64,000 bases of DNA from Salinivenus lutea. GTDB lineage: Bacteria; Bacteroidota; Rhodothermia; Rhodothermales; Salinibacteraceae. Positions 22,026 through 49,770 of this stretch are shown piece by piece. The translations under genes were made by a program, and so were the position numbers. The stretch covers positions 1-64,000 of the forward strand of contig NCRC01000015.1 in NCBI GenBank assembly GCA_002894685.1. Reading direction: 5' to 3'. Positions within the stretch are counted from its first letter, which is position 1; the number at the start of each line of letters is the position of its first letter. The notes below the pieces were generated by a model, which saw only the letters and a list, made by a program, of their open reading frames with translations, did no database searches and was not told where the DNA came from.

Positions 22026-22390
22026 GGGGATGACACGGCTTCGACGTGTGGCAAACGCGCAGAGAGCTGTCCTGCCGAGCTTCCTGACACGCTCGTAAAT
22101 CTTGTTAGGAAACGCAACTGCGGACGATTACTCGTACGCGATGGCGGCGTAAACGCCCCCATCTGTCCTACGCGGCTCCTGACCCTTGGGGCACGTAGGA
22201 CATCGACAAAAAGGGTGTAGTCGTCTCCTCCTCCGGCTGAGGAGGCGGCGGCGAAGCTTAACCAGCCTTTGCGCCCACCCGGCCTTGTGGACGGGCCTAC
22301 GGTGGACGTGAGCATCAATACATCCACTATGCAGGTAGAGGCTCGACCTGTGCGGCCATGCGGACCCGGGTTCGACTCCCGGCATCTCCA
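22026..22390 (+). ncRNA. ssrA: Transfer-messenger RNA
   Basis: One-piece tmRNA. The 5' end GGGGATGACACGGCTTCGAC and the 3' T-arm/acceptor GGTTCGACTCCCGGCATCTCC form the tRNA-like domain (acceptor stem GGGGATG with CATCTCC, one G-U pair, discriminator A at 22390). The CCA tail is not encoded (CAA follows). The tag frame runs to a TAA at 22150-22152 and reads GNATADDYSYAMAA; whether the resume codon is the GGA at 22108 or a codon slightly downstream cannot be fixed from sequence. The acidic tag with a hydrophobic AMAA end is a normal ClpXP degradation signal. The RNA rescues stalled ribosomes together with SmpB. A strong terminator follows. Confidence 0.95.
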
Positions 22391-22399
22391 CAACTCAAG

Positions 22400-29678: not shown

Positions 29679-32600
29679 CTAGAGCACCTTCTTGTCTACC
29701 AACTCCGGCACGAGCTTCTTCTCGGCGAGGGGCGTGATGTTGATGGCTACGCCGTGCTTCTTCACCGGACGGTACCCGGGCGTGCGCACCTCTTCGAGGG
29801 CGCGGGGCTTCCAGTCCGACTCCATGTGGGTTTTCAGGTCCTGACAGGCGTCGTTGATCTCTTTGCCCAGCTCGATGTCCTCGTCCGTCTCGCGGGCGAG
29901 GTCGGCGACGAGCTTCTCGCGGCGGCTGACGCCGTTGGTCTGGCCCTGGTCGATCTTCGCGGCGAGATCCTTCCCCTTCGAGAAGTAGTAGTTAAGGAAG
30001 AAGATGCCATTACTGCTGTAGTGGGTGGAGCCGACGAGGTCGTCGAAGTACGGGAGCAGGTCGTAGAGGTGCGCCTCCACGGGACGGTCGGCCGGGCGGG
30101 CGAACTGCTCGCAGGCGGCCTCCAGGTCCTCCAGGGCGTCGATCCACTCCTCGCGGTTGCCGTTGACCGACTCCATAAACTTGTCGCTGAAGTGGTCTTT
30201 GAACCAGGAGGTCGGGGCCTTTTCGTGGAGCGCGTCGAGCGTTTCCAGCCGTTCTTTGAGGCGCTCGCGGAAGCGGCGGACCTTGGGCTTGAGGTCTTGG
30301 GCGTCGTCCCGGACCGCCTCGGCCCACTTGCGGGGCTGAGTCTGGGTGAGCTCGCTGATGCGCGTCTCGAGTTCGTCGATCTGACGGAGGGCATTCTCAC
30401 ATCGCTTTTCTTCCTGCCGGGCTTCGCGGGCCTGGGTGCCCTCTGAACTCTCTGCTGTCCGGCGGGCGGACTGGCGGCGCTCCCGGAGCGCGGCCTTGCG
30501 GGTCTCCAGGTAGCGGGCGCTCAGGCGGTCAAAAACGTCGGGGCCGAGCTGGTGGTAGTCGATGAGGCAGGCAAAGCCGGTGTCGTCGTTCTTGTCCTCG
30601 CCCAACCGCTCGGTGGTGAGTTCCCACAGGATCGGCGTGTTCTCAAACTCGTCGCAGTGGAAGGCGAAGAGGTCGTTCTCCAGCCAGCGGCGCAGATTCG
30701 GGTACGGCTCGTCGGTCGGCTCGCGGTCGCCCAAGACCTCGTCGACTTCCCGTAGACGATCCTCGGCATACTCGCCCCAGATCTCATGAAACTTCGCGGT
30801 CATCTTTTCCAGCAGATCCGCTTCCTCCTCGTCCGATTCCGCGCGGAGGAGGACGATGCCGTCATCGTCTTCATCGACGATCTCAAAGGAAAGATGTTGA
30901 AGCAACTTCTTAACACGATACCTGAACGAGCTAGAAGTTAGCTCAGCCGTCTCAGGGTTCTCAACTTTTCGATCCTCCCTGTCTTCAGATGTCCGCAAAT
31001 ATATCTCCTCTCGAATTGCTTCTCGAGTATCCTCTCCAATCTGGAAGGAATCGAAAATCGTTTCGTCTATCTCAGCAGCCAACTGTTCAAGGTTATTCTT
31101 CCGCTTTAGCTTACGCTTCTCCTCTCTTTGGGCCAATTCTCTCAGAGATGCGGAGGCGTCTCCGCTGTTGAAATTGACGGAGCAGTCTTCTGGAATTCGG
31201 TCAATGAAAGAATGACCCGAGTAGAACCAATCCTGTACTTCTTGTTCTAGTAGGAGAGCGGGACCGATATAAAACGGACTCGTCGGGTCTTTCACGCTCC
31301 CGTTCAGGGCGAGGTTGAATTGCTCAAGTGCGGCTTTCTCAATCTTCGGAATATCCTCCACCGTATCCGGCCAAGGAATACGTCCTACGTGGCCGACCAG
31401 CCAGTGTCGTTCAAGAGTCATTGCCAGGAATAATGCGTGGTAGAGGTCGGAATTAAGGACTCCCATCGCTTGCCAGTAGGAGTCATCGTCGAAAAAAAGC
31501 ATTGACCCCGTACCGTCGAATGCTCCTCCAGGCGGGAAATAACCGAACCGCCTGCCGGTTTGCTTGATGTAGGACCAAGTCAATCCTTTGCGACCGAAAA
31601 ACCGTGTGTTCTGTGGTCTAGCCGTGTCTATTTTTTTTATCTCTTTTCCTTCACCTTCCCAATTCACGAGCCAAGTCATCTCTGGCATTATCCATGCGTC
31701 ACTTCCTCCCTTTGCATACGGAATGAACCCTGGACTGATAGGTGCTTCCCAGTGACGCCGCAGGAATCTCTCATTATTGCCGGTGTTCATGCCATTTGCG
31801 GCTGAAGCAACCTTCTCTCCGCTAACCCGAGCAGCCTCAGGATCCAACTTTCGGGATTCAGAGTGAATTTGGCGCACATGTTCAGGAATAGAATAACAGA
31901 GAGGAGCTCTTGGAACGACCTGAAACGAAGAATTCGGAATTTGGAAGAACCGATTTACCTCAGTGTCTTCTTCTCCAAAGCCAGCCCGGAGAAATCCTCC
32001 CTCCTTTTCCGGTTTGGCAAGGTCATGCAAACGTAAAAAGGTCCCCTCTCGGTCTTGTGTCTCACCGACCTCAACGACAGTACCAACAGTTCCTACCGTC
32101 GCATTGTCAAGAATGTCGTAACCGAATTCCGCAAGGAAGTCGAAGGCTCCCCGATCTCCAACGAAGTCCTCTCGGAAGTCCTGAAATGACTTTCTGAACA
32201 TGAAAGAGTGTGGCACGAGCATCCCGACTCTCCCATTCTCTTTCGACAGGCGCTCACCAATTTCAAAGAAATTGATGTAGAACTCGGGAGTATAGTCATA
32301 CTGGGCCTTGATGTATTGCCGCACCTCCTTTGGCATCCGCTCCCGCGCTCCATAAGGTGGATTCATCAGCGTCACATCATAATCCTGGGTCAGCACTGTA
32401 AGAAGACGGGCGAGACTGCGCAGGTCGGACGCCGCAAATCCGTCTCCATTTAGCCGTTGCTCTACAGTTTCTCGGAAGTCTCGAAAGAGGGCTTTCAGGT
32501 CACTTCCATGTTTAGAATCAAGTTCTGCCCCGTGCTCAACAAACTGTCCTTCGATCTGAGCAGTCGGATTGAAAAGACTCCCTAACCCTGGTGTCTCTAC

Positions 32601-33962
32601 AAACTCATTACAAACCTCGCTGAGCATAGATCGGACTGACGTGCTTCCACCGGCTACCTCATCGAAAACCTCCGAAGCAAGCTGAGTGTCGAGCCCATGC
32701 ACGTCAGCACACACGATTCCCACACTTGGCATGTCAAACCTCTTGCTTCCGTGCTCCTCGGTTCGACTCCGCGCCTTCAGGTAAAGGTTAAAGGCCGCCA
32801 GCTGACAGGCGCGTAGGTCGAGATCGACGCCGTAGAGGTTGTACTGAAGAATTTTAGCAGGCACCTCAGCGCGTGGTACATCCGGCGCCATCGTCCACCA
32901 GATGCGCTCCATTACGTCGAAGGCGTAGAGCAGAAAGTGTCCGCTCCCGCACGCCGGGTCAAACAAGCGGATCTCACTCGGATGCTCGAAATCCGTTGCC
33001 TCTCCTTCCTCCTCGGTGGCCACGAGGTACGTGCACAGCTCTTCGATCGACTCAGCTGTGCTCGCGTCGCGCTTTTTCCGCTCCTCTGGTGTGAACCGTG
33101 CCTCCTGATTCTGAATCGTCTCGTGCAGCTCATCCTCGTGCTCCAGAAAGAGCTTTCCGAGACTATTGTCCGTCAGCATCCGCACCACCCAGTGCGGCGT
33201 GTAGAACTGGTTGGCAACTGGTACATCCTCAGCATTGAGCCCCGGCCCTCTTGCCTTCTCGCGGACGTCGCCTAGATCCGGCATATTGTAGTACTCGTAC
33301 ACCCAACCCAGCACGTCATCCGCCCGCCACACGGCATCGTCCACCTCGTCGAGCAGCCCGCCGAGGTCCTGCAGTAGATCCACGAGGCTGGACTGCAGCT
33401 CATCGCTCCACGCTAGCTCCTCGGGCTCCCCGTCCCAGTCGGTGAGGTCCCCGTAGAGCAGGCTGTAGGGGTCGCTTAAGTCAAAGAGAATCTCGATCTC
33501 CTCGCTCCGCTCCTTACAGGCCACGAGGAACGCCGTCCAGATGCCCGCTTCCCGGGGCAGGAAGTAGTCGGTAATCAGCCGGTCGGCCGCCGGCGTGACG
33601 CCGTCTTCCCGAAACCGCGTCGGGCTCCGGTCCAGGAAGCCGCGCACCTCCATGCAGCGCAGCGCCGCCAGGCGGTTGACGAGCGTGTAGCCGACGCCCT
33701 TCACGTACAGGTCCCGGGCTTTTTCCCAGGAGCGCTCCCCGGCCTGCTCCCGCTCGATGGCCTCCGCGACGCGCTCGCGAAGCGTCTGCTCCTCTGGGCT
33801 GAGTCCCGTCGGGGCGTCGGCGCCGTCCTCCGCGAGGTTCAGCTTCGAGTGGACCCAATACTCGACGGTCTCCTCGGCGCGCTCCCGGAGCTGCTTGACG
33901 ATTTTCTCCAGGTGGCGGCGCTCGGCGTCGTCGAGTTGGGCTTTTTGGGCGGTGTCGGTCAT
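29679..33962 (-). CDS. pglX: BREX PglX adenine-specific DNA methyltransferase
   Basis: 1427 residues. An N-terminal helical region, then N6-adenine methyltransferase motif I FDPACGSGHFLLYAF near residue 334 and catalytic motif IV MNPPYGARE near 534. Target-recognition sequence is expected between about 650 and 1000, and a long charged helical C-terminus follows. It methylates host DNA at the BREX motif, marking self. Composition is mosaic: residues about 400-1027 (30880-32760) are near 48% GC in four hand-counted lines, against 72-77% in two counted flanking lines. An A8 run (coding strand) at 31631-31638, near residue 775, lies inside the frame. The 653-base gap upstream sets it apart from the brx genes. 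Confidence 0.93.
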   Translation of the reverse strand: MTDTAQKAQLDDAERRHLEKIVKQLRERAEETVEYWVHSKLNLAEDGADAPTGLSPEEQTLRERVAEAIEREQAGERSWEKARDLYVKGVGYTLVNRLAALRCMEVRGFLDRSPTRFREDGVTPAADRLITDYFLPREAGIWTAFLVACKERSEEIEILFDLSDPYSLLYGDLTDWDGEPEELAWSDELQSSLVDLLQDLGGLLDEVDDAVWRADDVLGWVYEYYNMPDLGDVREKARGPGLNAEDVPVANQFYTPHWVVRMLTDNSLGKLFLEHEDELHETIQNQEARFTPEERKKRDASTAESIEELCTYLVATEEEGEATDFEHPSEIRLFDPACGSGHFLLYAFDVMERIWWTMAPDVPRAEVPAKILQYNLYGVDLDLRACQLAAFNLYLKARSRTEEHGSKRFDMPSVGIVCADVHGLDTQLASEVFDEVAGGSTSVRSMLSEVCNEFVETPGLGSLFNPTAQIEGQFVEHGAELDSKHGSDLKALFRDFRETVEQRLNGDGFAASDLRSLARLLTVLTQDYDVTLMNPPYGARERMPKEVRQYIKAQYDYTPEFYINFFEIGERLSKENGRVGMLVPHSFMFRKSFQDFREDFVGDRGAFDFLAEFGYDILDNATVGTVGTVVEVGETQDREGTFLRLHDLAKPEKEGGFLRAGFGEEDTEVNRFFQIPNSSFQVVPRAPLCYSIPEHVRQIHSESRKLDPEAARVSGEKVASAANGMNTGNNERFLRRHWEAPISPGFIPYAKGGSDAWIMPEMTWLVNWEGEGKEIKKIDTARPQNTRFFGRKGLTWSYIKQTGRRFGYFPPGGAFDGTGSMLFFDDDSYWQAMGVLNSDLYHALFLAMTLERHWLVGHVGRIPWPDTVEDIPKIEKAALEQFNLALNGSVKDPTSPFYIGPALLLEQEVQDWFYSGHSFIDRIPEDCSVNFNSGDASASLRELAQREEKRKLKRKNNLEQLAAEIDETIFDSFQIGEDTREAIREEIYLRTSEDREDRKVENPETAELTSSSFRYRVKKLLQHLSFEIVDEDDDGIVLLRAESDEEEADLLEKMTAKFHEIWGEYAEDRLREVDEVLGDREPTDEPYPNLRRWLENDLFAFHCDEFENTPILWELTTERLGEDKNDDTGFACLIDYHQLGPDVFDRLSARYLETRKAALRERRQSARRTAESSEGTQAREARQEEKRCENALRQIDELETRISELTQTQPRKWAEAVRDDAQDLKPKVRRFRERLKERLETLDALHEKAPTSWFKDHFSDKFMESVNGNREEWIDALEDLEAACEQFARPADRPVEAHLYDLLPYFDDLVGSTHYSSNGIFFLNYYFSKGKDLAAKIDQGQTNGVSRREKLVADLARETDEDIELGKEINDACQDLKTHMESDWKPRALEEVRTPGYRPVKKHGVAINITPLAEKKLVPELVDKKVL

Positions 33963-34615: not shown

Positions 34616-37600
34616 CTACGTTGAGTCCTTTCGGATGAGGACGATTCGGCCCTGGGCTTCTTGGTCGAGGCGGTTGATGAGGGTTTCCAGGCGCTCTTTT
34701 GTTTCTTTGGCGTCGTCCGATCCGAACTTGTCGGTGAAGCCCTCCCACGTCGTTTCGGGGGCCTCGTCTTCGTCGGTCTCGAAGTCCTCGTCCTCCCCGC
34801 TGTCCTCCAGTTCATTTTTCTGCTGCTCCCGGTACTCCTGAACGTCCTGCAGAAGAGAGCGGAGTGTGCTCGGTTCGGGGATCTCTTCTTTCGTGGCGCT
34901 TTCCAGCTTTCGGGTGACTTTTTCCATCGGGGCGTCCACGGTGAGCGTGTCGCGGGCCTCGACGAATCGGTCCCAGAGGTCAGAGTTATCGCCCAGTCGG
35001 AGCCGGTAGGCCCGCCGGAAGGACTCGGCCTCGGCTTTGATGTTCTCCTGCGAAAAGGCCGCCGCGTCTACGCTCGACGGGTCGGTGGCCGCCTGCTTCA
35101 GGAGGTTCGTCAGCGCCTGGATGGCAACGTCCTCAAAGGCCTGCTCGACGAACTGCTGGACGCGCTGCACCGCCCCGGCGTGGGCCTGCGCCCACTCGGT
35201 AATTTCGTCGGCAATGTCGGCCGTGTCGTCGGGCGTCGCGTCGCGGCCGGTGAGGAGGCGGTGGACCGAGCGGAGCCGTTCGACCGCGTCCCGGTCGGGC
35301 GGCGCCTCCAGCCGAATGGTGAGGCGCCGGATCTGCGTCTTTGTGCGGAGGGCGCGCCCCATCTCTGCGGGGTCCCGGATGAGCGTTCCGTCGCGCCGCA
35401 GCTGAATCTTCTCCCCCGCGGCAAGAGCCAGGAGCAGGGCCTGGAGCGCCTCCACGGATGTCCCGAGGAAGGCCCCGCCGCGCTGTTCAATCATCGCGAG
35501 GACCTGGTCGCCGCCCAGCAGCGTGCCGGTCGCCCGGGTCGTCGCCACTGTCCAGAAGTCCTGCGCCCAGCCGTCCTCGCCAACGTCGTGGGCCGCCACG
35601 TTCACGCCCAACGTCCGCGCATCGGCGTCGCTCAGGGGCCACTCGGCGTCGCCCCGGAAGAACCGGGCGAGAACCGGCCCGTCGTCGATGGGCTGGAGCG
35701 GGCGGGTGAGGGAGCGCCGCTTCGGAAACTTGCGGGGCACCACCTCCTCCGCCACGAAGGGCTTCAGTCCGTCGGCGTACGTGCCAAAGTGTCTGTCGGA
35801 CTGGGCGTCCACCACCTGCGCCTCGTCGAGCGCGGTGCGCAGGGCCGCTCGCAGCGCCCGCTCTTCCCGGAGGTGGTCGGACGTCAGGTCGGGAAAGTGC
35901 CGGGTTTCGTTTTGCAGTACGTCGCCCGTCGCCACGTGCCGGCGCAGTCGCCGCTCGAAGTTCGGGGGCAGCTGAACGGCAATCAGCCCATCCTCCAGCG
36001 ATGGGCTTTTGCCGTTTTTCTCCGTCCACGCTTCGACCTGCGAATCCTCGTCTTCGGCCTCCACCAGCACCCGCAGGGCAACCGTAGTGGCCTGGTCGGA
36101 CGGGTCCGGGATGGAGGACAGGACCGTGTAGTAGAGGGTGAGGGGCACGCCCCGCTCGCCGCCAATGTCGACTTCCTGTCGGTTGTCGGGCGCCATGAGG
36201 AGCGAGCCGTACTCCCGCATCCATTCCATAATCGTGGAGCGGAGGCGCGGATAGGAAATCGTGTCGGCCCGTTCCTCGACCTTCTCGGCCACGGAGACCT
36301 CCTGCTCCGTGAGCAGGCGGTACGTGGTGGGATCGTTGTCGGTCTCTTCAAAGACGTATTTTTTCTCGTCGAGCCAGTTAAGGGCCTCCCCCACCGCCGC
36401 CTCCCGCTCGTCGACGGTCTCGTCCACGCGGCGGAGCAGCAGGTAGGTGATCGCCGACTGGGTGGCCGGCACTGCGGCCTGGTTCAGGAGAAAGACCGTC
36501 CGGGCCACCGCCTCCACCGGCGCGTCGACCTCCGTCGCGCTCGCCTCCAGGCGGCTCAGGAGTTCCTCGGTCCAGGTGGGCACGAGGTTCGTTTCGCTCC
36601 GGAGCACCGCAAAGAGATCGGACGCCGGGACGAGCGCCCCCAGCCGCTCTTCGGCCCAGCCCTGCCGGACGAACAGGGCCCGCACCAGCACCAGAAGCGC
36701 CCGCCCCTGAATGTGCTCGGTGGCCGCGCCCCGCCCGCCAGTCAGCAGCGACTGCATGGCCTCCCGGACCCAATGCAGGTCGCCGGGCCGGAGGGGGTAC
36801 GCGGCCACGGCATCCTCCTGGGACGCCGCCCCATTCGATAAAGGGTCCGGCGGATCCGGCATCGAAGCGAGGACGCCCTGCACCTCGCCTTTCTTTTGGC
36901 TCTTCTTCTGCAGCCACCGCCGGCGCACAATAATCTCCGTGTCGGCCCCTTTGAGCTGCACCTCCCGGCTGTACCACGCGTCGGAATCAGGATCCCCGAC
37001 GAACTCGGCGTGGACCGTTTCGAGGGCCCACTGCCCCGTGCCCAGCACGACCGGGTTGGGCCCGTCGATGAGGGCGCGCATGGTGCGCTGGAGTTCTTCG
37101 TAGCGGCTGCGCTCGTCGCCGATGAAGAGGGCGATTTCGTCGAGGCCGATGAGAAGTTCGGTGGGCTGATCGTGCCGCCGCGACAGCAGGGCATGCACCT
37201 GCTCGACGCGATCCCGCAGGTCCTCGGCCCCAAACGCATCGTCCGCGACCGCGGCTTCGGCGGCCTTGATCCACGCCTCCACGTCGTCCCGGGTGCCGGC
37301 CCCGCCCGCCTCCGCGAGCACGGGCGGAACGGCCTCATACAGCCAGGTCCGGATGCGCCCCCGATCGTCGAGAAGGCCCCGCCCGTCCACTCGCTTCTCC
37401 TGAAGACGAGGCCAGATGTCCGTTTCCGGCGCCTGCTGTTCAAGCCGAAGCAGAAACTCCAGCAGCCAGCGCGGGTCCGTCGGGTAGCCGAGGCGGGTGC
37501 CGATGGCCTCGTAGATGAGCACCGGAATCGGCGGCTCCGCCGAGGCGTCCCGGTCCAGCAGGTTCAAAAACACCGGCACAAACCGGTCGGTCGAGGCCTC

Positions 37601-37948
37601 TTCGATGGCCGTGCGGAGGTGCTGAAAGCCCTCGAACCGGGTGCTCAGGTCGCTCACCACCGACGGCGGCGCGCTCGTCTGCCCGGTGGCGTAGCTAATG
37701 AGCTTGAGCAGGTGCGTCTTTCCCGACCCAAAGGTGGCGTGCAGATACAGGAATCGTGGGTCGCGGGCGGCGGGGCTCTGGGCGACAATGCCACTCAGCG
37801 CGTCCAGCACCCGCCGGGCACTCTCCGTCTCACAGAACTCCTCCACGTCCCGCTCGGCCTGCTCCGTCGCGTTGACCTTCTGCACCTCTTCCAGGTCGCG
37901 GGTGGGGTCCCGGTGAAAAAGTGTGTGGAGGCGGGGCGCGTCTGCCAT
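34616..37948 (-). CDS. Second BREX BrxC/PglY-type P-loop ATPase
   Basis: 1110 residues from the ATG at 37948 (MADAPRLHTLFHRDP); in-frame sequence upstream overlaps the BrxB gene and is not family-like. Walker A is ATFGSGKTHLLK (GSGKT at 74-78) and Walker B is LLIGLDEIALFIGD (DE at 270-271). These positions and the IxLFIG tail match the larger BrxC upstream almost residue for residue, so the two are paralogues. The remainder is long, acidic and helical, ending in a coiled coil. BrxC/PglY proteins are large STAND-like or AAA-type ATPases of the BREX complex. It lies 52 bases after BrxB. Confidence 0.88.
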   Translation of the reverse strand: MADAPRLHTLFHRDPTRDLEEVQKVNATEQAERDVEEFCETESARRVLDALSGIVAQSPAARDPRFLYLHATFGSGKTHLLKLISYATGQTSAPPSVVSDLSTRFEGFQHLRTAIEEASTDRFVPVFLNLLDRDASAEPPIPVLIYEAIGTRLGYPTDPRWLLEFLLRLEQQAPETDIWPRLQEKRVDGRGLLDDRGRIRTWLYEAVPPVLAEAGGAGTRDDVEAWIKAAEAAVADDAFGAEDLRDRVEQVHALLSRRHDQPTELLIGLDEIALFIGDERSRYEELQRTMRALIDGPNPVVLGTGQWALETVHAEFVGDPDSDAWYSREVQLKGADTEIIVRRRWLQKKSQKKGEVQGVLASMPDPPDPLSNGAASQEDAVAAYPLRPGDLHWVREAMQSLLTGGRGAATEHIQGRALLVLVRALFVRQGWAEERLGALVPASDLFAVLRSETNLVPTWTEELLSRLEASATEVDAPVEAVARTVFLLNQAAVPATQSAITYLLLRRVDETVDEREAAVGEALNWLDEKKYVFEETDNDPTTYRLLTEQEVSVAEKVEERADTISYPRLRSTIMEWMREYGSLLMAPDNRQEVDIGGERGVPLTLYYTVLSSIPDPSDQATTVALRVLVEAEDEDSQVEAWTEKNGKSPSLEDGLIAVQLPPNFERRLRRHVATGDVLQNETRHFPDLTSDHLREERALRAALRTALDEAQVVDAQSDRHFGTYADGLKPFVAEEVVPRKFPKRRSLTRPLQPIDDGPVLARFFRGDAEWPLSDADARTLGVNVAAHDVGEDGWAQDFWTVATTRATGTLLGGDQVLAMIEQRGGAFLGTSVEALQALLLALAAGEKIQLRRDGTLIRDPAEMGRALRTKTQIRRLTIRLEAPPDRDAVERLRSVHRLLTGRDATPDDTADIADEITEWAQAHAGAVQRVQQFVEQAFEDVAIQALTNLLKQAATDPSSVDAAAFSQENIKAEAESFRRAYRLRLGDNSDLWDRFVEARDTLTVDAPMEKVTRKLESATKEEIPEPSTLRSLLQDVQEYREQQKNELEDSGEDEDFETDEDEAPETTWEGFTDKFGSDDAKETKERLETLINRLDQEAQGRIVLIRKDST

Positions 37949-38000
37949 GGTGCGAGGACGTGGGATTCGAAGAGGGGGCGGCGCGGGGCCGCTCGTCGAG

Positions 38001-38585
38001 TTATTGGAGGTGATCCATCGTAATTCGCTCGTCAATCCGATGGGCGGGGTAGTAGTGCTGGGCACGCTCGCCGAAGAAGCTTAGTTTTCCCCCGATAATC
38101 TCGCCCGGAAACGGGATCCCCACGGTAGCCTTGACCCGGCGCCTGTCCATTTCGTCGAGCAGCTCCGACGAGCGGGCGAAGGGATACAGGGCGCCGAGGT
38201 GCAGGAGCAGCAGGACCTGCTCGGTCCGGCCGCACGCGGCCTCATGGGTGGCGATAATCTCGTCGACCATCTCCGTGGCCAGGTTGTCCTGGAGCGTTCG
38301 CTCTTCCTGCTCGGCTCGCTCGTCGGCACCCCCGTTCTGAAAGAAAGAAGACGGCAGACCGACCACGGTCTGGAAGACCTCCGTTCGGGGCATGACGCGA
38401 TCGAGATAGATGGGCGCGACGGGAACCGACGTCTCCCCGTAGGCCCACGTCTGCAGGCGGGCGGCGGTTGCCTGCTCGGCCGGCGGGTCGACAGGAACCA
38501 TGACGAACGGGTTGCGGATGCCCCGCTTCTGCCCGGTCGCAAACGCGGTGAGGCGTTCTGTAAAGTCGACAAGCGGTGTGCTCAT
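38001..38585 (-). CDS. brxB: BREX protein BrxB (DUF1788)
   Basis: 194 residues. DUF1788 features: an N-terminal VDFTERLTAFATG helix, the central LLLLHLGALYPFARSSELLDEM (quoted in parts: LLLLHLGALYPF and SSELLDEM) and the ending VGIPFPGEIIGGKLSFFGER...YYPAHRI, which parallels the PFxR...FYPG...LSLFG...YY pattern of BrxB proteins. It is small, soluble and without a catalytic motif, and is thought to be a structural partner within the BREX complex. Its ATG overlaps the stop of the upstream BrxC gene by four bases (ATGA), showing translational coupling. Confidence 0.85.
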   Translation of the reverse strand: MSTPLVDFTERLTAFATGQKRGIRNPFVMVPVDPPAEQATAARLQTWAYGETSVPVAPIYLDRVMPRTEVFQTVVGLPSSFFQNGGADERAEQEERTLQDNLATEMVDEIIATHEAACGRTEQVLLLLHLGALYPFARSSELLDEMDRRRVKATVGIPFPGEIIGGKLSFFGERAQHYYPAHRIDERITMDHLQ

Positions 38586-41500
38586 GCGTGTCGTCTAATG
38601 ATGACGCCGTGGTCGGTGTCGTCGAACTCGTACTCGTCTCCGTTCCGGGCGAGGCTGTGCAGTGCGTTTTGGAAGTTGTCCGCGTCTTTGGGCCAGTACC
38701 CAATCGCCTCGACTTCCTCTGGCGTCGCTCCCCCCGTGACCGCCTCCAGCAGGTCGAGTTTTTGTCGGGGCGCGTCCACGTCTTTCACGGTGGACAGGTC
38801 CAAAAATCCGCCTCGCTGGAGGCGTCCAAGCGTTCTCCGCAGGTCGGACGAGGCAACGTCGTGGGCATCCTGCGTGAGCGGGGTGATCATTTCCTCCGCT
38901 CGCTCCATCGCCTGCCGAAAGCTCCGAAGAGGCCCCAGGACCTCGGTGCGGAACTGATGGCCCACGGAGTCCAGGGACGGTTCCTTCGGAGGGGCTAGCC
39001 AGGGATTCTCTTTGGTCTTCTCCATCACCCGGGTTCGGTCTTCATCTTGTTTCAGGTCCGCCCACCAGCTATTGAGGGCCTGCGTGGCAGCCGTGCGATT
39101 ATCGAGGGTATCGATCAGCTCCGTCCACCCGTCCTCGGTCCACCACAGGGTCGAGGTGGCCACCCGGACTTCTTCGTAGAGAGTCGACAAGGCCTCGGCG
39201 GCCTCTCCGTCGAGTGCCTCTTCGTGCTTCTTCTGAAGGAGAAGGAGCGCGTCGAGCTGGAGAAGAAACGACTCGCGGGTGTCCCACTGCCGGGCAGCCG
39301 CCTCAATCTGCTCCTGCCTGTTCAGAACTCCCTGAATGACCGAGGCCCAGTTCGGGTGCCGGTCCCGGGTCTTTTTGAGCCACCGGTCGATTTGCTCGCG
39401 TTGTTGACCAAGCTGCTCGGAGAGCCCATTGAGAAGCTGCTGGACCGGATCGGTCGCCGTGTCCCGCTGCGCAGCGTCGATCTGCTGAAACAGCGTATCG
39501 GCCCGGCGGCGCTGGGCCTCGATAAACGAGCGGGCCTTCACGATGGCCTCGTTCATCGTGTCGCTCGAATCGATGCCGGGGACCTGCTCCAGCTGCGTTC
39601 GAAGCGATTCGTCCTGCCCGATCCGGAGCCGCACTTCGTGCCAACGGCTCGGGTCTAGAATTTTGTCGGCGCTCAGCGGATTGCCCTCCTCGCTTATGGG
39701 CTGAAACGTTCCCTCCTGGCACAGTCCCCACAGGTGTGCGACCAGGGCCGGTCCCACGTCGTCGTACGCCGCCTCCTTCTCCCGGAGCCGCTCAAGGGCG
39801 GTGGTTACGCTGAGCGTCTCGGCCTGCCGGAGGGCGCGGCCCACAATGCCGCGCACGGTGGTGACGATGTCTCCCGTTAGCTCCGTCTGATTGTCGCAGA
39901 CCACCTCGATCTTTTCGGCCCAGGGAGGGAGGTCCGAGGTCCATCGGGTGCCTTTCAGCTCCCGGAGTCGACGCTCGTCGACCAGAAGCATCTCCGGGTG
40001 GAAGGCACTCGGAGATGTAGTCCGAACGTATTCGACGACCCCGTTTGCGACGGAGCTCGGGGTGGACATCGGAACCGAAAGACTTCCGCTTTGGATGCGG
40101 GACGCAATCCGGGCCGGCAGCCCCTCGCTGCGGCGACGAAGCGTATTCTTGATCGTGGTCGGCGTCTGGTGCATCCGGCACGCCGCTGAAAGCGCAGCCC
40201 ACTCCTTCAGTTCCTCATATAGCGAGGCCCGCCCATCCGCCGGAAGCTTCCATAAGAAGGCATCGCTGTGTTCGGTCTGGGGGCGCTCTTCGTCCGACAC
40301 AAGACCCTCAACGTGCACCTTCACCTGGAGGGCCCCGTCCTCTCCGTAGGACGACGCGAAGGGGTGCCCGTCCACATCGAACGTGTACTGCACCGGATAC
40401 CGATCGCCTTCTTCGGCGTACGGCACGCGCTTCGGAAGATCCAGGTGACGAAGCACCTCGTCCCAAAGCGAGGCGGATCCGGCCGTTCCGAACACGCTCG
40501 TCGACGTGGTCATCTCCTCGACAAGGTCGGCCGGAGCAAACTGGGCCTCTTTTTCTTCCGCGGCTTCGAGGACGGCTCGCTCTTCCCGGTCGGTAAACCG
40601 CCGCCGGGAGGGATCCTCGTCGTCGGTCCGGATGTATTTGCCCAGCCGCCCGAGGGACGCGTCGACGGCGTTGGCCATCCGGTGGAGGGTATTGCCGTTC
40701 AGGTCGTCCATAAGCCCGACGGCAATGTTTTTCGCGTTGTCGAGGGTAATCATGTCCGGGACGCGCTGAAGCAGCAGCACGACCTTGCAGACCTTTGCGT
40801 CGATGGGCTTAAGCTCCCCGTCCTCGACACGCGACTCGACCTCGTCGATGGTCTCGACCTCTCGGGGCACGATGTCCTCCAGTTCCGGCCGGATGACCTC
40901 GAAGAAGTCGACGAGGGACACGATGCGGGTCGGATTTCCCTCCTTCCCGTCGAACGGGCCCTCCGCGTCGGCGCCCCACCGCTCCAGCAGGCCGTTCACG
41001 ATGGCCAGGACCGCCCGGGCCGTCCCGGAGAAGATGGATTTCGCCCGGTCGGCCTCCTCGGTGCGGAGGTTCGACAGGATGTCCAGAAAGAGCGGCGGGT
41101 GGTACGGAAGCAACGGGAGATACGCCTGTACGTCCTCATCCGACAGCTGGTCGAGGGGCGGATCGGTGTTCTTCTGCACGTCGTAAAACACCAGCGAATT
41201 GGCCGGCTTCAGCTCTGCTTCGGACCGGGCCTTCTCGAATGCACGGGCCCCCTCCCCCGTTTTTCGGAGCAGGCGGTTGCGAACGATGTCGCCCACGTGG
41301 CTGGAGGGCAGGCTATACTGGTGCGGAAATCGGTCGTCGAGAATGCTAAAGTCGACCTCCCGGGCCGCGTATTCCGTCTGCACCCGGGACGGGTCCTCCT
41401 GCGCCGTGCCGATCGTCAGGATGTTGCCGTCTCCCTCTTCGTCGATCGCCTCCGCAAGCGCGTTGAGCTCCGTCAGGAGCCCGTACTGCGTGCCAATGAA

Positions 41501-42325
41501 CAGCGTGATCTCGTCCAACAGAAGGAAAAGACGAACCGGACGGTCGGCATCGTCTTCGAGGGCCTGCCGCGCATCCTCAATGCGTTCTGCGACTTTACTA
41601 GCTTTGAGGGAGCGGTCGATGACATCGGAGAGGCCGTCCCGCGTGCCTGTCTCATCCTCAACGAGCTCCGGGAGCGTCCCGTGGGCCAGTACTCGATACT
41701 TCTGCACCAGGGCCCACAGGGATTCACCCGGCAGGTCGTCCGCCACGTCCCGACGGACCTGCTCGGCGTGGGCCTCAAGCTCCTCTTTTGAGTGCGTCTT
41801 CAGGTACCACTGTTCAAAGAAAGCGGTCTCAAGGTGCGGAGAGAGGCCCTGCTCTTCGTGGAGGCGGCGGAGGATGACATTTCCAAATCCCCGCTGCCGG
41901 TTTCCCTGCTCCTTGAGGAGGTTGACGAAGAGCGGATGGAGCTGATATTCATCCAGGCAACGGTCCCACAAGGCCCGGAGATGGGGCAACGCATCCGAAC
42001 GTCCTGAAAGCGTCATCCAGACGCGGTCGCGACCGATGTCTTGCACCCATTCAGAATTGAGGAGCAGTCCCGTGACGGCGAGCAGATGGCTTTTTCCACT
42101 GCCGTAGTAGCCGTACAACCAGTGATTGAATCCGCGCCGCTCCCCTTCCGCCTCGCCGAGAATCCGCGCAAGGATGTCCTGGAGGTAGTCCTCGGCGGAG
42201 GCCGTGACGTGATAGCTTTCGAGCAGCCGAAGCCGTTCGGCTTCCTCGTTTCCGGAGGGCCGGCGGTCGACACGAACGGATTCTTCTAGGTCAAATGTGG
42301 ATTCAAAAAAGGCGTCCAGCGCCAC
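38582..42325 (-). CDS. brxC: BREX P-loop ATPase BrxC
   Basis: 1247 residues from a GTG at 42325 (MALDAFFESTFDLEES). Walker A is YGYYGSGKSHLLA (GSGKS 75-79) and Walker B is LFLLLDEITLFIG (DE 271-272). Long helical regions follow, with FRTEVLGPLRSFRQAME near the C-terminus. BrxC is the large ATPase of BREX and is needed for both modification and exclusion in studied systems. Its stop overlaps the BrxB start, and BrxA lies 90 bases upstream. A small CCCC/GGGG hairpin (42401-42414) sits directly after the BrxA stop, ahead of this gene. Confidence 0.9.
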   Translation of the reverse strand: MALDAFFESTFDLEESVRVDRRPSGNEEAERLRLLESYHVTASAEDYLQDILARILGEAEGERRGFNHWLYGYYGSGKSHLLAVTGLLLNSEWVQDIGRDRVWMTLSGRSDALPHLRALWDRCLDEYQLHPLFVNLLKEQGNRQRGFGNVILRRLHEEQGLSPHLETAFFEQWYLKTHSKEELEAHAEQVRRDVADDLPGESLWALVQKYRVLAHGTLPELVEDETGTRDGLSDVIDRSLKASKVAERIEDARQALEDDADRPVRLFLLLDEITLFIGTQYGLLTELNALAEAIDEEGDGNILTIGTAQEDPSRVQTEYAAREVDFSILDDRFPHQYSLPSSHVGDIVRNRLLRKTGEGARAFEKARSEAELKPANSLVFYDVQKNTDPPLDQLSDEDVQAYLPLLPYHPPLFLDILSNLRTEEADRAKSIFSGTARAVLAIVNGLLERWGADAEGPFDGKEGNPTRIVSLVDFFEVIRPELEDIVPREVETIDEVESRVEDGELKPIDAKVCKVVLLLQRVPDMITLDNAKNIAVGLMDDLNGNTLHRMANAVDASLGRLGKYIRTDDEDPSRRRFTDREERAVLEAAEEKEAQFAPADLVEEMTTSTSVFGTAGSASLWDEVLRHLDLPKRVPYAEEGDRYPVQYTFDVDGHPFASSYGEDGALQVKVHVEGLVSDEERPQTEHSDAFLWKLPADGRASLYEELKEWAALSAACRMHQTPTTIKNTLRRRSEGLPARIASRIQSGSLSVPMSTPSSVANGVVEYVRTTSPSAFHPEMLLVDERRLRELKGTRWTSDLPPWAEKIEVVCDNQTELTGDIVTTVRGIVGRALRQAETLSVTTALERLREKEAAYDDVGPALVAHLWGLCQEGTFQPISEEGNPLSADKILDPSRWHEVRLRIGQDESLRTQLEQVPGIDSSDTMNEAIVKARSFIEAQRRRADTLFQQIDAAQRDTATDPVQQLLNGLSEQLGQQREQIDRWLKKTRDRHPNWASVIQGVLNRQEQIEAAARQWDTRESFLLQLDALLLLQKKHEEALDGEAAEALSTLYEEVRVATSTLWWTEDGWTELIDTLDNRTAATQALNSWWADLKQDEDRTRVMEKTKENPWLAPPKEPSLDSVGHQFRTEVLGPLRSFRQAMERAEEMITPLTQDAHDVASSDLRRTLGRLQRGGFLDLSTVKDVDAPRQKLDLLEAVTGGATPEEVEAIGYWPKDADNFQNALHSLARNGDEYEFDDTDHGVIIRRHA

Positions 42326-42415: not shown

Positions 42416-43219
42416 CTAGGCGGCCTTTTCCTCTTGATCCGCGGGCGCTATGACCGTTTCGTCCCGAAGCCGAGAGGTGTTCCACCGATCGCTCGCCTGG
42501 ATCGTATTGAGAAGCGTCTCCTGATGGGCCGGCGGCTGGAACAGATACATCCACCCAATGGGCCGATCCGGCCACTCCTTTCCGTCTTCATGCCAGGAAT
42601 ATAGGGCCCCCACGTGGGCGGGCGGGCCATCTATGCTCGGCACAACCCCGTGCTCGTCGTACGGTCCCTTGAGGACCCCGATGTCGCGGAGCACCGATCG
42701 GAATCCCTGTCCCCATCGATGCAACGTCGACTCTGCATACTGGAGTCCGGCCCCATCGTCATCCTCGAAGGAGTCGAGGACAGACACGATTTCGTCCGTC
42801 GTCAGGTGCCACTCCGACCGATCGATGCCCTGCCGGCGGAGAATCTCGTGGAGGACAAACCGGAAGAGGTGATCTTCGCGTATCAGGTAAAAATAAAACA
42901 ACTGCGCCTTCGCCTGCGCTGTGGGGCATTCCTGGACCAGGGTGTGGAGCTCGGTCAACGAGGGGAGCTCTTTCCCCCCCGACTGCAACCGACGCTTTAG
43001 AATCCGGAAGATCCCCTGTGCACTGCCCCGCGACCCTCGCTCGTGGATGCGCTCCCCGTGCCACTTCTCCTTGACCGTTGCCCAGTTGTGATGCTCGGCG
43101 TAGAGTCGGACGATCATTTCTACGCGGTCCGGCAAGAGTCCAGCCTCCGTCAGAGACATCGATATCTCGGACGCAGAAAACGCTCTTTTCAATGACGGGG
43201 GGCCTGTGCTGGACTCCAT
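42416..43219 (-). CDS. brxA: BREX protein BrxA (DUF1819)
   Basis: 267 residues, ATG at 43219. The DUF1819 pattern is seen in FSASEISMSLTEAGLL, DRVEMIVRLYAEHHNWATVK (each quoted within limits), RGSRGSAQGIFRILKRRLQS and the following AQLFYFYLIREDHLFRFVLHE segment. BrxA is a small winged-helix DNA-binding protein of BREX. The C-terminal approximately 80 residues (WHEDGKEWPDRPIGWMYLF) extend beyond the usual BrxA length and are unassigned. It is the first brx gene of the operon, with the DUF2779 nuclease gene 162 bases upstream. Confidence 0.85.
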   Translation of the reverse strand: MESSTGPPSLKRAFSASEISMSLTEAGLLPDRVEMIVRLYAEHHNWATVKEKWHGERIHERGSRGSAQGIFRILKRRLQSGGKELPSLTELHTLVQECPTAQAKAQLFYFYLIREDHLFRFVLHEILRRQGIDRSEWHLTTDEIVSVLDSFEDDDGAGLQYAESTLHRWGQGFRSVLRDIGVLKGPYDEHGVVPSIDGPPAHVGALYSWHEDGKEWPDRPIGWMYLFQPPAHQETLLNTIQASDRWNTSRLRDETVIAPADQEEKAA

Positions 43220-43381
43220 TAGACACTACTTGACAGCCGAAATTTTATTCCGCCTACAGATTTTGAATGTAGCTGACAACCGCTTCCAATTCAATTATGT
43301 CCTGTAGAGGTCGCGCATCTCAGAGAACGGGACTGGAGCGCACGTGCAAGAACCCGGAACGAACAGTCCCCCCCTGGGCAC

Positions 43382-44980
43382 TCACGAGTGGGTCGACGCA
43401 CCGGGTGCCGTTGCATTTCGCCCCACCAGATTGGACAGCGTCTTATGGATCACCACCATCGCCCAGGTGTCCCGCTCGCAGTACGCGAGAAGGTCCTCTT
43501 CGATTTCCTGGGCCCTCGATTCGGATGTCTCCGGCGCAATCATTCGGCTGTACTCCACAACGGCCTCCATCCCTTGCTGGACGTCCAGGTCGTCGTAGTC
43601 CAGATCCGGATCAAAGGCCGGCAGCACCTTCTTCAGCGACCAGCTTCCTTTTTGGGACGGGTGCACGTAGTGCCCCTCCTGAAAGATCTCTCCCTGGTCC
43701 CAGAGCCGATCAATGAAACTCTGGAATCGGTCCGCCCCCTGGGGAAATGCCTCCTGAAGATCCTCCAAAATGCCTTTCTCGAAGGTCGCGTTGTAGACGA
43801 CGATCGATCCGTTGGGACCGATGTCCTCAAGTAGGCGCTCGGCCAGCGATGGGCGGGGGTCCCCGTCGCCGGTGTGCAGAAACTCTTTGTGGGTCACGTC
43901 TTCTCTGCGGAGGGACTCTTGCCCCTCCTCCACCACGTGCAAGCTGTACTGAAACGGAATTTTCTCCCAGGGAGAGGTGCCCTCGAAAGGCGGCAGGGCG
44001 TAGTCGATTGCTTCAAAATCCAGAAAGTAGAGCGGGTACTCAAGCTCGCTCAGGGCACGTTGCACCTCCGGGGTATCAACGTAGGGCTCTCCGGACTGTG
44101 CGGCCTGGATGTAGTTGCGGTGCTTCGACTTCAGATGGGGGTGTCCCTCTACGTCTTCCAGGGTCCATCGCCCCTCGTCGATAATCTCGTCCAGATGCCC
44201 GTAGTAGAGTCTCGGCAGTGTGAGCACCGAGTGCTCCGGCAAATCATGACACGGCTCCGGGCAATCGCAGGTATTGCAGGTCCGAGAGGGCCAGAGCATC
44301 GGCGGCTCATCGCGGTCGAGAACGGCGGCAAACTCCGGGGCCTTCTCGCGGGCCTCCTGAATCTGCTCGTCCAGCTCTCCGGTGAGGTCCCTCTGCGTGA
44401 ACAGCTCCTCTTCGTCCGGATGGACATAGTCAGGATTTAGGTGCATCACCTCGGCCCGATCCAACGGCAGCCCTGCCTGGTCGAGGACATGCACCTGGAA
44501 GGCCACGTCCTGCTTGGCCTTTTTCCTGGACGATCGGCTCGTCATCGTGCTACTCTTGACCTCTGTGAGCACCCACCCCCCACTGGGAGCGGGACGTAGC
44601 ACATCTACCCGGACCGTCATGTCCCCTACTGCGAAGCGCGCCTCAAAGAGCGGGCGCGTGGGTTGGAGCTGGTCTTCGCTCGGCGGACCGCCCACAAATT
44701 CTCCGTTCGGAAACTCCTCCCGCGCCAGCTCGGCGACGAGGTTTCCCTGCTCCATGCGCCAGCGTTCGCCAATGTCGGGCGACAGACGCCCCCGCGTCTC
44801 GAACCACATCACCCTCTTGTTCTCGGTGACCCCCGTCATGTACCGGCTCTTTGTGAGTTGATCGGGCCCGAGTCGGTCGCGCTGAGCACTCCGTGAGCCC
44901 TTCTGGGGTGCCCCCGATCTGTCGAAGTGAACCTTGTATCCATCGGAAGCAACGCTTGTGAGGGCGAGATGTACGTCCAT
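43382..44980 (-). CDS. DUF2779 protein: Cas4-like nuclease fused to DEDD exonuclease
   Basis: 532 residues. The ATG at 44980 is used because the family's opening LTKSRYMTG segment (usually LTKS...CPKRLWL) lies upstream of the next ATG. The N-terminal PD-(D/E)XK domain has VRVDVLRP and WVLTEVKSS; a Cys cluster CNTCDCPEPCH (about 238-248) recalls the Fe-S site of Cas4/AddB. The usual first Cys of the CPKRLW motif is absent (TENKRVMW). The C-terminal DUF2779 has RNase H-like DEDD residues: YFLDFEAIDY, VVYNATFEKGIL and YCERDTWAMV. It sits at the upstream end of the BREX operon on the same strand. Whether it belongs to the system is inferred from position. Confidence 0.8.
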   Translation of the reverse strand: MDVHLALTSVASDGYKVHFDRSGAPQKGSRSAQRDRLGPDQLTKSRYMTGVTENKRVMWFETRGRLSPDIGERWRMEQGNLVAELAREEFPNGEFVGGPPSEDQLQPTRPLFEARFAVGDMTVRVDVLRPAPSGGWVLTEVKSSTMTSRSSRKKAKQDVAFQVHVLDQAGLPLDRAEVMHLNPDYVHPDEEELFTQRDLTGELDEQIQEAREKAPEFAAVLDRDEPPMLWPSRTCNTCDCPEPCHDLPEHSVLTLPRLYYGHLDEIIDEGRWTLEDVEGHPHLKSKHRNYIQAAQSGEPYVDTPEVQRALSELEYPLYFLDFEAIDYALPPFEGTSPWEKIPFQYSLHVVEEGQESLRREDVTHKEFLHTGDGDPRPSLAERLLEDIGPNGSIVVYNATFEKGILEDLQEAFPQGADRFQSFIDRLWDQGEIFQEGHYVHPSQKGSWSLKKVLPAFDPDLDYDDLDVQQGMEAVVEYSRMIAPETSESRAQEIEEDLLAYCERDTWAMVVIHKTLSNLVGRNATAPGASTHS

Positions 44981-45380
44981 GGGGGTGGGAAGAATTGTGT
45001 GGGGAATATCGAGTTGGGTTGTCTTCTATTCCCGTATTTTTTGATGCGGGCGCGGGGAGGCGTGTCTCCCTATCTGGCGAGCGGTTGCGTCCCGATCATT
45101 GTGTACCTGACCCGGCTGGATGGAAAACGCCACCGCGTAGTCGAGATGTGGTTCTTAACCACGACGGCCTTGAAGAGACAGGCACCCTGACGATCGTTGG
45201 CCGCCCTGCGTCGACATAGAAGGAACGTACTATGATGAGGTGGGGCGACGTGAAGCAGCTGGACCGGAAGACTGGATGCCCGACGGGGATCGGCCCCGAC
45301 AGATACCGGACTGGGTCCGCGGGTCACCCTGAAGCTGCTGGCAAGCCCCGACTCAGGGGTTGACTAACGATATAAAATCA
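44981..45380. other. Intergenic region at the right edge of the defence island
   Basis: No confident gene. A 43-codon plus-strand frame (45232-45363, starting MMRWGDVKQLDRKTG) has AAGGA seven bases before its ATG but no known relatives that I recognise. Minus-strand promoter elements for the BREX operon should lie near 44981-45100; I could not single out a convincing one. CAAGCCCCGACTCAGGGGTT (45342-45361) shares its two arms with the tmRNA terminator. Confidence 0.35.
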
Positions 45381-45418
45381 AAAAGGCGGGGCCCACTCCA
45401 TGGCCCCGCCTTTTCGGC
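45381..45418 (-). terminator. Terminator of the secreted-protein gene (works in both directions)
   Basis: AAAAGGCGGGGCC (45381-45393) and GGCCCCGCCTTTT (45402-45414) are perfect 13-base inverted repeats around an 8-base loop, giving a T-run on either strand. It lies about 30 bases past the stop of the minus-strand gene ending at 45447, and also closes off plus-strand transcription. Confidence 0.88.
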
Positions 45419-47882: not shown

Positions 47883-47947
47883 AGGTGACGAGAGGTGGGA
47901 GAATCCAGAGACAAGTGATCCAGAACACTTGGACAGGGGCAGGGAAG

Positions 47948-49291: not shown

Positions 49292-49353
49292 CAACACTCG
49301 GGGTTTGCTAGAAAAATCGAACGTTCGCCGGTTCGAGGAGGACGAAGGGCCCA

Positions 49354-49770
49354 TCAGGCAGTCTGGGGAGCCTGTTCGGCCGCGTTAGCGTCTTCCTCCT
49401 CGTGGCGAACGATGATCACGGACGGGTATGCGGACGTTCATCATAATTCGTTCTGACGCCGTGCCGAATAGAATCTCCCGCACCGACGGCCCGGTTTCGG
49501 CCAGCACGGTCGGACTTCGGATCTCTCAGCGCAAACTCGGCTGCTCGCTGGGCGCGCACACGGGCCCTCGCACACCAGGGCCGCGACGCTTCCCACTTCT
49601 TTGTCCCGGACTCTGTTCACGAGGGCGAGCTCGCAGAAGGTGTCCTCGACGATTTTGTCGATGCTGGCCCCCAGATGTGCTCGTACCACGTGCACTGCCC
49701 GCTCTAGCCAAGCACGACATGCAAGGCACGCTCCCTCACCACATTCGAGGCCGCGTCTGCCCGACGATGG
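49354..49770 (-). pseudogene. Frameshifted universal stress protein (UspA family)
   Basis: Pieces of a UspA domain are spread over different frames of the minus strand. From high to low coordinate: AWLERAVHVVRAHLGASID and EDTFCELAL; then AQRAAEFALRD in another frame; then GPSVREILFGTASERIM, the diagnostic UspA G..SxxxxxLLGSxxER motif; then, after one more shift, VIIVRHEEEDANAAEQA to a TGA at 49354-49356. At least two shifts are needed to join them, so the gene is dead. The N-terminal half is not recognisable. The next gene downstream is trkA, a common UspA partner. Confidence 0.7.

What the first reader, a model, noticed from the sequence alone, without database searches (positions are those of the whole stretch)
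43382..44980. Cas4-like/DEDD double nuclease at the head of the BREX operon
The DUF2779 protein combines a PD-(D/E)XK domain with Cys cluster and an RNase H-like DEDD exonuclease, and lies 162 bases before brxA on the same strand. The opposite end of the operon carries a second nuclease (NucS-like, 15 bases from the helicase). BREX is known for blocking phage without obvious DNA degradation, so two flanking nucleases suggest an added effector layer.
Basis: inference. Interest (0 to 1): 0.6.

Follow-up and report, generated by a model that had tools for sequence, protein, structure and literature searches.

The report
Double nuclease beside a BREX operon
Next to a complete phage-defence (BREX type 5) operon in a Salinibacter-like bacterium lies an intact gene for a two-domain DNA-degrading enzyme; it travels with the operon in this genus but mostly lives elsewhere without it, so it is better read as a mobile helper nuclease than as a proven part of BREX.

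Summary
Window 43382-44980 (-) encodes 532 residues. Residues 36-245 have a Cas4 fold and residues 314-527 a DEDD 3'-5' exonuclease fold; both active sites are intact. It lies 162 bp upstream of brxA in a complete type 5 BREX operon that ends in a NucS-like nuclease. All of it sits in a 28.5-kb island at the tmRNA gene, absent from a 96%-identical relative.

For: a second Salinibacter genome carries a decayed but contiguous DUF2779-brxA block in which both genes show past purifying selection. Against: the nearest relatives on two S. ruber plasmids have no BREX, the sister-genus BREX-5 lacks the gene, and about 2 of 104 DUF2779 loci adjoin BREX genes. Haloarchaeal BREX-5 loci lack it too, but those genomes lack the family altogether, so that absence is uninformative.

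Two-domain DUF2779 proteins (2014) and auxiliary nucleases beside BREX (2026) are already described. I read the gene as a mobile, defence-type DNA-end nuclease co-carried with BREX. A wider pattern looks more interesting: unrelated end-processing nucleases (AddAB-like, Mre11/Rad50-like, DUF2779) recur beside type 5 BREX.

The parts
43382..44980 (-). DUF2779 protein, 532 aa: Cas4-like PD-(D/E)XK domain (res. 36-245) with C235/C238/C240/C244, and DEDD-type 3'-5' exonuclease domain (res. 314-527)
   Evidence: Pfam PF11074 3e-40; model and fold matches; catalytic residues conserved
43220..43381 (-). 162-bp gap between DUF2779 and brxA; one promoter-like site (43323-43294), no terminator; diverges from the G021 copy at the same rate as third codon positions
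45379..45416 (-). strong terminator-like hairpin upstream of DUF2779, so DUF2779 probably opens a new transcription unit
42416..43219 (-). brxA (267 aa)
   Evidence: Pfam BrxA 1.3e-12; PADLOC BrxA 2.8e-75
38582..42325 (-). brxC/pglY copy 1 (1247 aa)
   Evidence: PADLOC BrxC 6.5e-287
38001..38585 (-). brxB (194 aa)
34616..38065 (-). brxC/pglY copy 2 (1149 aa; start codon uncertain)
   Evidence: PADLOC BrxC 1.6e-246
29679..33962 (-). pglX, type 5 (1427 aa)
   Evidence: NCBIfam NF033454, 1778 bits against a cut-off of 900
27301..29481 (-). pglZ, type 5 (726 aa)
   Evidence: NCBIfam NF033444, 660 bits against a cut-off of 250
24019..26916 (-). brxHII helicase (965 aa)
   Evidence: PADLOC BrxHII, 1440 bits
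22903..24003 (-). NucS/DUF91-like PD-(D/E)XK nuclease, PADLOC candidate PDC-S11 (ATG at 23967 is the likelier start)
   Evidence: PDC-S11 8.2e-68, NucS_C 2.7e-5; start codon
22392..50869 (.). genomic island holding all of the above plus a TrkH/TrkA pair; replaced by about 0.7 kb of unrelated sequence in the relative G013
   Evidence: TrkA; TrkH
22026..22391 (+). tmRNA gene; its 3' end is the left border of the island

Best explanation
The gene encodes a mobile, accessory DNA-end nuclease of the kind found in defence islands. A Cas4-like PD-(D/E)XK domain and a DEDD 3'-5' exonuclease domain sit in one chain and would degrade opposite strands or different end types of linear or nicked DNA. In Salinibacter it has been co-carried with the type 5 BREX operon for a long time. 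It most likely works by itself, or as a loosely coupled helper that removes DNA already cut or stalled by BREX, rather than as a core BREX subunit. Shown: intact domains and catalytic residues, shared island, linkage in two genomes, past purifying selection. Inferred: DNA-end activity, defence role, division of labour between domains.
For: Domains and active sites. Accessory distribution: DUF2779 in 2 of 27 family genomes and 59 of 394 in the phylum sample. One island with BREX. Contiguous DUF2779-brxA remnant in G021, with codon-position divergence 14.5/5.5/33.9% (DUF2779) and 10.8/9.7/32.6% (brxA). Co-occurrence in the family: DUF2779 only in 2 of the 3 genomes with BREX-5 brxA, in none of the other 24; Fisher P 0.009, very small sample. 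BREX-free close relatives on S. ruber plasmids (76% and 57% identity). Other DUF2779 loci lie among restriction and candidate-defence genes: IetA-like AAA ATPase plus WYL, type III RM with DrmD-like helicase and NucS-like nuclease, type I RM.
Against: I found no biochemical or phage data for any DUF2779 protein. The family is placed among presumed 3'-5' exonucleases (PMC3985635), but substrate and polarity are untested. The motif II acidic residue is E401, not the usual D. The family-level counts are very small, and the linkage in two genomes could reflect tighter functional coupling than I allow.
Confidence: 0.58

Rival explanations
1. DUF2779 is a dedicated auxiliary effector of this BREX-5. 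Sensing or nicking by the BREX complex (PglZ) exposes DNA ends, and DUF2779 at the head and the NucS-like nuclease at the tail then destroy the invading DNA.
For: Position at the operon head on the same strand with no terminator between; linkage kept in a second genome and lost together with brxA; DUF2779 directly after BREX-1 pglZ-brxL in L203 and near a short PglZ-like protein and brxL in L207; NucS-like, DUF2779 and a DrmD/BrxH-like helicase side by side in L184; auxiliary nucleases beside BREX are a published pattern (PMC12839542).
Against: BREX-free relatives, one of which (pSR67) is closer to the BREX-linked G021 copy than the window copy is; sister-genus BREX-5 without it; about 2 of 104 DUF2779 loci adjoin BREX genes; 162-bp gap evolving at the same rate as third codon positions.
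Confidence: 0.3
2. The gene is a passenger with a repair or plasmid-maintenance role that has nothing to do with defence; neighbourhood with BREX reflects a shared insertion hot spot at tmRNA.
For: The island also carries a TrkH/TrkA potassium-uptake pair; DUF2779 is frequent on plasmids of many phyla; a DUF2779 gene was hit by a transposon in a Mycoplasma bovis cell-culture screen, in a reduced genome where no BREX is known to me (PMC7373297).
Against: Patchy distribution even within the genus; repeated company of restriction and candidate-defence genes; decayed together with brxA in G021.
Confidence: 0.12

Closest known systems
DUF2779 (PF11074), RNase H-like family F.17 with a DUF83 (Cas4-like) domain, as classified by Majorek et al. 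2014 (PMC3985635)
   Same: Same two domains; above the Pfam cut-off; same conserved DEDD-type residues.
   Different: The Salinibacter members lack the N-terminal cluster Cys and carry an extra Cys (CxxCxCxxxC) in the C-terminal part of the cluster.
COG2251 / TM0106-type RecB-like nucleases (PF13482 with DUF83)
   Same: PD-(D/E)XK plus RNase H-like exonuclease fusion (PMC3985635).
   Different: Different Pfam family for the RNase H-like part; [quoted passage not shown]
Cas4 / solo-Cas4 nucleases (PMC5704561)
   Same: Fold of residues 36-245 and D...ExK...Q motif.
   Different: No Cas1/Cas2 neighbour, fused to a DEDD domain, fourth Cys relocated.
Auxiliary and backup nuclease effectors of BREX (Rakesh and Krishnan 2026, PMC12839542)
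   Same: A nuclease gene immediately beside a BREX core operon; PD-(D/E)XK is their commonest class.
   Different: Their main text does not mention DEDD, Cas4, RecB, AddAB, Mre11, NucS or any exonuclease, nor DUF2779 (the library search for that word did not return it); supplements were not readable here.

Membership tests
DUF2779 (PF11074) | Pfam profile above gathering score | tested here: met
   137.8 bits against a cut-off of 23.3
DUF2779 (PF11074) | Cas4-like (DUF83) domain together with the RNase H-like domain | tested here: met
   Model residues 36-245 match Cas4, Z 13.7
Cas4 family | PD-(D/E)XK fold with D...ExK and Q motif | tested here: met
   D126, E140-x-K142, Q162; fold match
Cas4 family | Four-Cys cluster with one Cys N-terminal and three C-terminal to the nuclease core | tested here: not met
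   No N-terminal Cys; four Cys at 235, 238, 240, 244. It is Cas4-like, not filed as Cas4
Cas4 family | Adjacency to cas1/cas2 (CAS-Cas4) | tested here: not met
   Neighbours are brxA and a 154-aa ORF
DEDD 3'-5' exonucleases | RNase H-like exonuclease fold | tested here: met
   Z 14-16 to exonuclease domains of family B polymerases over residues 314-527
DEDD 3'-5' exonucleases | Four acidic residues D-E-D-D in motifs I-III | tested here: inconclusive
   D321, E323, D504 present; motif II has E401, invariant in the family, in place of D
BREX type 5 | brxA, brxB, duplicated brxC/pglY, pglX5, pglZ5, brxHII in one locus | tested here: met
BREX type 5 | DUF2779 as a regular component of the system | tested here: not met
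   Absent from 58 other BREX-5 loci and from the sister genus G023; the haloarchaeal absence is weak evidence because DUF2779 was not found anywhere in those genomes
Auxiliary BREX effector | Loss reduces exclusion | not testable with these tools
   needs genetics

The most novel reading that the evidence does not exclude
Type 5 BREX operons have an accessory slot for DNA-end-processing nuclease machines that differ in ancestry: AddAB-like helicase-nuclease pairs beside about a quarter of the haloarchaeal genomes examined, an Mre11/Rad50-like pair in the sister genus G023, and the DUF2779 double nuclease here. That would mean BREX-5 regularly works together with resection of invader DNA.
Probability: 0.3. 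Interest if true: 0.6.

Novelty: new member of a known kind. Interest (0 to 1): 0.36.

Why it matters
How BREX stops phage DNA is still open, and whether flanking nucleases are working parts or fellow travellers is a live question. This locus gives a compact test case: an intact operon with two separable nuclease genes at its ends, and a sister-genus operon without them. If end-processing nucleases of unrelated families really recur beside BREX-5, that points to DNA ends as an intermediate of BREX defence.

Tried and rejected
(1) A genome-collection scan with the single BrxC1 protein found nothing; an alignment query found 49 loci. (2) PglZ (PF08665) as a genome-level marker of BREX was of little use, because most hits lie in open frames of about 520 aa rather than in BREX-sized PglZ proteins. 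(3) I first counted no BREX near DUF2779 using only type 5 queries; adding type 1 queries and profile searches exposed L203 and L207, so that statement was withdrawn. The weak BrxL-like match in L212 was not upheld by the profile search. (4) Absence of DUF2779 from haloarchaeal BREX-5 loci looked like strong evidence against coupling until one search found the family in none of the 40 genomes; discounted. (5) No direct repeat of 12 bp or more was found for an att site, and no integrase was recognised among the island ORFs scanned. (6) Phage records gave no match to a DUF2779 relative, BrxC1 gave none in viral contigs, and the NucS-like protein gave none there. (7) No solved structure is convincingly related by sequence (best E 0.28).

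Full report
What is there. The window is part of a Salinibacter-like genome: it is contig C7 of own genome G000, and the closest plasmid relatives are from Salinibacter ruber. ORF 43382-44980 on the minus strand is intact: 532 aa, ATG start, no internal stop. Pfam identifies DUF2779 (3e-40, residues 318-448), with only weak sequence signals for PD-(D/E)XK and Cas4. Structure prediction from an alignment of 20 sequences gave a confident model (mean pLDDT 87.9, pTM 0.85). Residues 36-245 match Cas4 (7mi5, Z 13.7, rmsd 3.8 A, 183 aligned). Residues 314-527 match the 3'-5' exonuclease domain of family B DNA polymerases (Z 14-16), and Foldseek ranks exonuclease 5, Cas4, RecE, lambda exonuclease and RNase T near the top. 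So 'Cas4-like plus DEDD' is correct.

Are the active sites intact? Yes for the PD-(D/E)XK core (D126, E140-x-K142, Q162) and for the exonuclease (D321, E323, E401, D504). Most of these residues are invariant or nearly so in an alignment of 18 sequences from genomes and plasmids and in one of 20 that adds viral-collection contigs. Motif II carries E401 rather than the textbook D, but so does the whole family. One real oddity: relatives have a Cys near the N-terminus plus three Cys after the core, the Cas4/AddB arrangement. The window protein and the two S. ruber plasmid proteins lack the N-terminal Cys and instead have a fourth Cys in the C-terminal cluster (CxxCxCxxxC, C240). This looks like relocation of an Fe-S ligand, which is inference.

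The operon. brxA, brxC, brxB, brxC, pglX, pglZ and brxHII are all present, with type 5-specific NCBIfam models for PglX (1778 bits) and PglZ (660 bits). Gaps between core genes range from overlaps to 653 bp, so the 162-bp gap to DUF2779 is not unusual for this operon. There is no terminator-like site in that gap, while a strong 15-bp hairpin terminator stands upstream of DUF2779 (45416-45379). Read-through from DUF2779 into brxA is therefore possible but untested. At the other end the NucS-like PDC-S11 protein is 15 bp from brxHII with the TTG start, or 51 bp with the ATG start that the family profile favours.

The island. Relative G013, 96-97% identical on both sides, has about 0.7 kb where the window has 28.5 kb (22392-50869), beginning at the 3' end of the tmRNA gene. 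The island is G+C-poorer than its flanks (61.5% against 68.3% and 65.9%). It contains BREX, both nucleases and a TrkH/TrkA pair. Sharing an island is thus a fact, but not by itself evidence of shared function.

Linkage test inside the family. Of 27 genomes in the family, DUF2779 occurs in two (G000, G021) and type 5 brxA in three (G000, G021, G023). In G021 a decayed DUF2779-brxA block is colinear with the window across the intergenic region at about 78% identity, with deletions and frameshifts in both genes and no other BREX-5 gene on that contig. Divergence by codon position is 14.5/5.5/33.9% in DUF2779, 10.8/9.7/32.6% in brxA, and 33% between the genes. Both genes were therefore under purifying selection for most of the separation, and they diverged to the same degree, as expected if they travelled as a unit. 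G023 has a type 5 BREX on a 55-kb replicon and no DUF2779. Two S. ruber plasmids, pSR67 and pSR76, carry DUF2779 (76% and 57% identity) with no trace of BREX nearby. Over the part shared by all four, pSR67 is closer to G021 (83.5%) than the window is to either (80-81%), with 0.99 support. BREX-linked copies therefore do not form a group of their own.

Wider survey. None of 58 other BREX-5 loci has DUF2779, and none of the 20 plasmids with a full-length type 5 BrxC appears among the DUF2779 plasmids. But DUF2779 was not found in any of 40 haloarchaeal BREX-5 genomes at all, so this says little about function. Starting from DUF2779 instead, 104 loci with up to about 10 kb on each side (not deduplicated) contain BREX hallmark genes in about two. 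L203 has BREX-1 pglZ, brxL and then a long DUF2779; L207 has a long DUF2779, a short PglZ-like protein and then brxL. In G226 a BREX-sized PglZ lies 35 kb from DUF2779. More typical company is restriction or candidate-defence genes: an IetA-like AAA ATPase and WYL protein, type III RM, a DrmD-like helicase and a NucS-like nuclease (L184), and type I RM. L184 is notable because it holds both of the nuclease types that flank BREX here, next to a BrxH/DrmD-type helicase.

The tail nuclease. A 347-aa NucS-like PD-(D/E)XK protein lies between brxC2 and pglX in two haloarchaeal BREX-5 loci and downstream of brxC2 in a third (L119, L129, L158; about 31% identity). A NucS-like gene also lies two genes from brxL of a type 1 BREX in Halomontanus. 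This nuclease type therefore has somewhat better independent BREX links than DUF2779.

A pattern noticed on the way. AddAB-like PD-(D/E)XK plus UvrD pairs stand directly beside BREX-5 in many haloarchaea, often divergent from brxA. In 20 BREX-5 genomes with an AddB-like gene, 10 of 24 copies lie within about 25 kb of brxC1, that is, next to one end of the operon. For uniform placement in a 4-Mb genome 0.3 would be expected, and 1.7 if confined to 0.8 Mb (P 6e-13 and 3e-6); none of the 24 lies that close to an HsdR gene. The query was itself a BREX-linked AddB, which may bias the count upward, and general clustering of defence genes is not fully excluded. In G023 the BREX-5 tail carries an Mre11-like phosphoesterase and a Rad50/SMC-like ATPase.

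Explanation and comparison with the literature. The two-domain architecture of DUF2779, and its presumed 3'-5' exonuclease activity, were described in 2014 (PMC3985635). Auxiliary nucleases beside BREX were catalogued in 2026 (PMC12839542), though that main text names none of AddAB, Mre11, NucS, Cas4, DEDD or exonucleases. PglZ of type 1 BREX is itself a nuclease (PMC12205998). The best-supported reading is a mobile defence-type DNA-end nuclease co-carried with BREX-5 in Salinibacter (0.58). A dedicated BREX effector remains possible (0.30), and a non-defence passenger is least likely (0.12). Nuclease activity, substrate, polarity and any link to exclusion are untested.

Noticed in passing
L048, L113, L117, L118, L124, L125, L130, L131 and others; AddAB-like helicase-nuclease pairs sit directly beside haloarchaeal type 5 BREX operons; 10 of 24 AddB copies in 20 BREX-5 genomes lie within about 25 kb of brxC1, none near HsdR.
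   Followed up: partly
L106:2866-7757 (G023:C3): The type 5 BREX on a 55-kb replicon of a sister genus ends in an Mre11-like phosphoesterase and a Rad50/SMC-like ATPase directly after brxHII.
   Followed up: partly
window 44249-44278 (codons 235-244 of DUF2779): Salinibacter DUF2779 proteins lack the usual N-terminal cluster Cys and have a fourth Cys in the C-terminal cluster (CxxCxCxxxC); possible relocation of an Fe-S ligand.
   Followed up: partly
L184:8711-18787 (IMG/VR contig): NucS-like PDC-S11, DUF2779, DrmD/BrxH-like helicase, type III methylase and type III restriction subunit in one tight same-strand cluster.
   Followed up: partly
L203:5427-11998 and L207:9113-14697: Long-form DUF2779 genes next to pglZ and brxL of type 1-like BREX loci in viral-collection contigs.
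   Followed up: partly
L119:18227-19267, L129:19213-20253, L158:21748-22788: Near-identical 347-aa NucS-like nucleases inside haloarchaeal BREX-5 loci, downstream of brxC2 (between brxC2 and pglX in L119 and L129).
   Followed up: partly
L171:5766-10500, L172:5683-10297: Recurrent trio of IetA/TRIP13-like AAA ATPase, DUF2779 and WYL protein on proteobacterial plasmids; in L172 followed by PADLOC candidate PDC-M27.
   Followed up: partly
window 22026-22391 and 22392-50869: The tmRNA 3' end is an insertion point: a 28.5-kb island here, 0.7 kb of other sequence in G013; no integrase or direct repeats recognised.
   Followed up: partly
window 46392-49354: A TrkH/TrkA potassium-uptake pair lies in the same island; a TrkH 94% identical occurs in G012, while most congeners have only a 45-50% identical paralogue.
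   Followed up: no
window 33963-34615: 653-bp gap between brxC2 and pglX, the place where haloarchaeal BREX-5 loci often carry extra small genes; content not identified.
   Followed up: no
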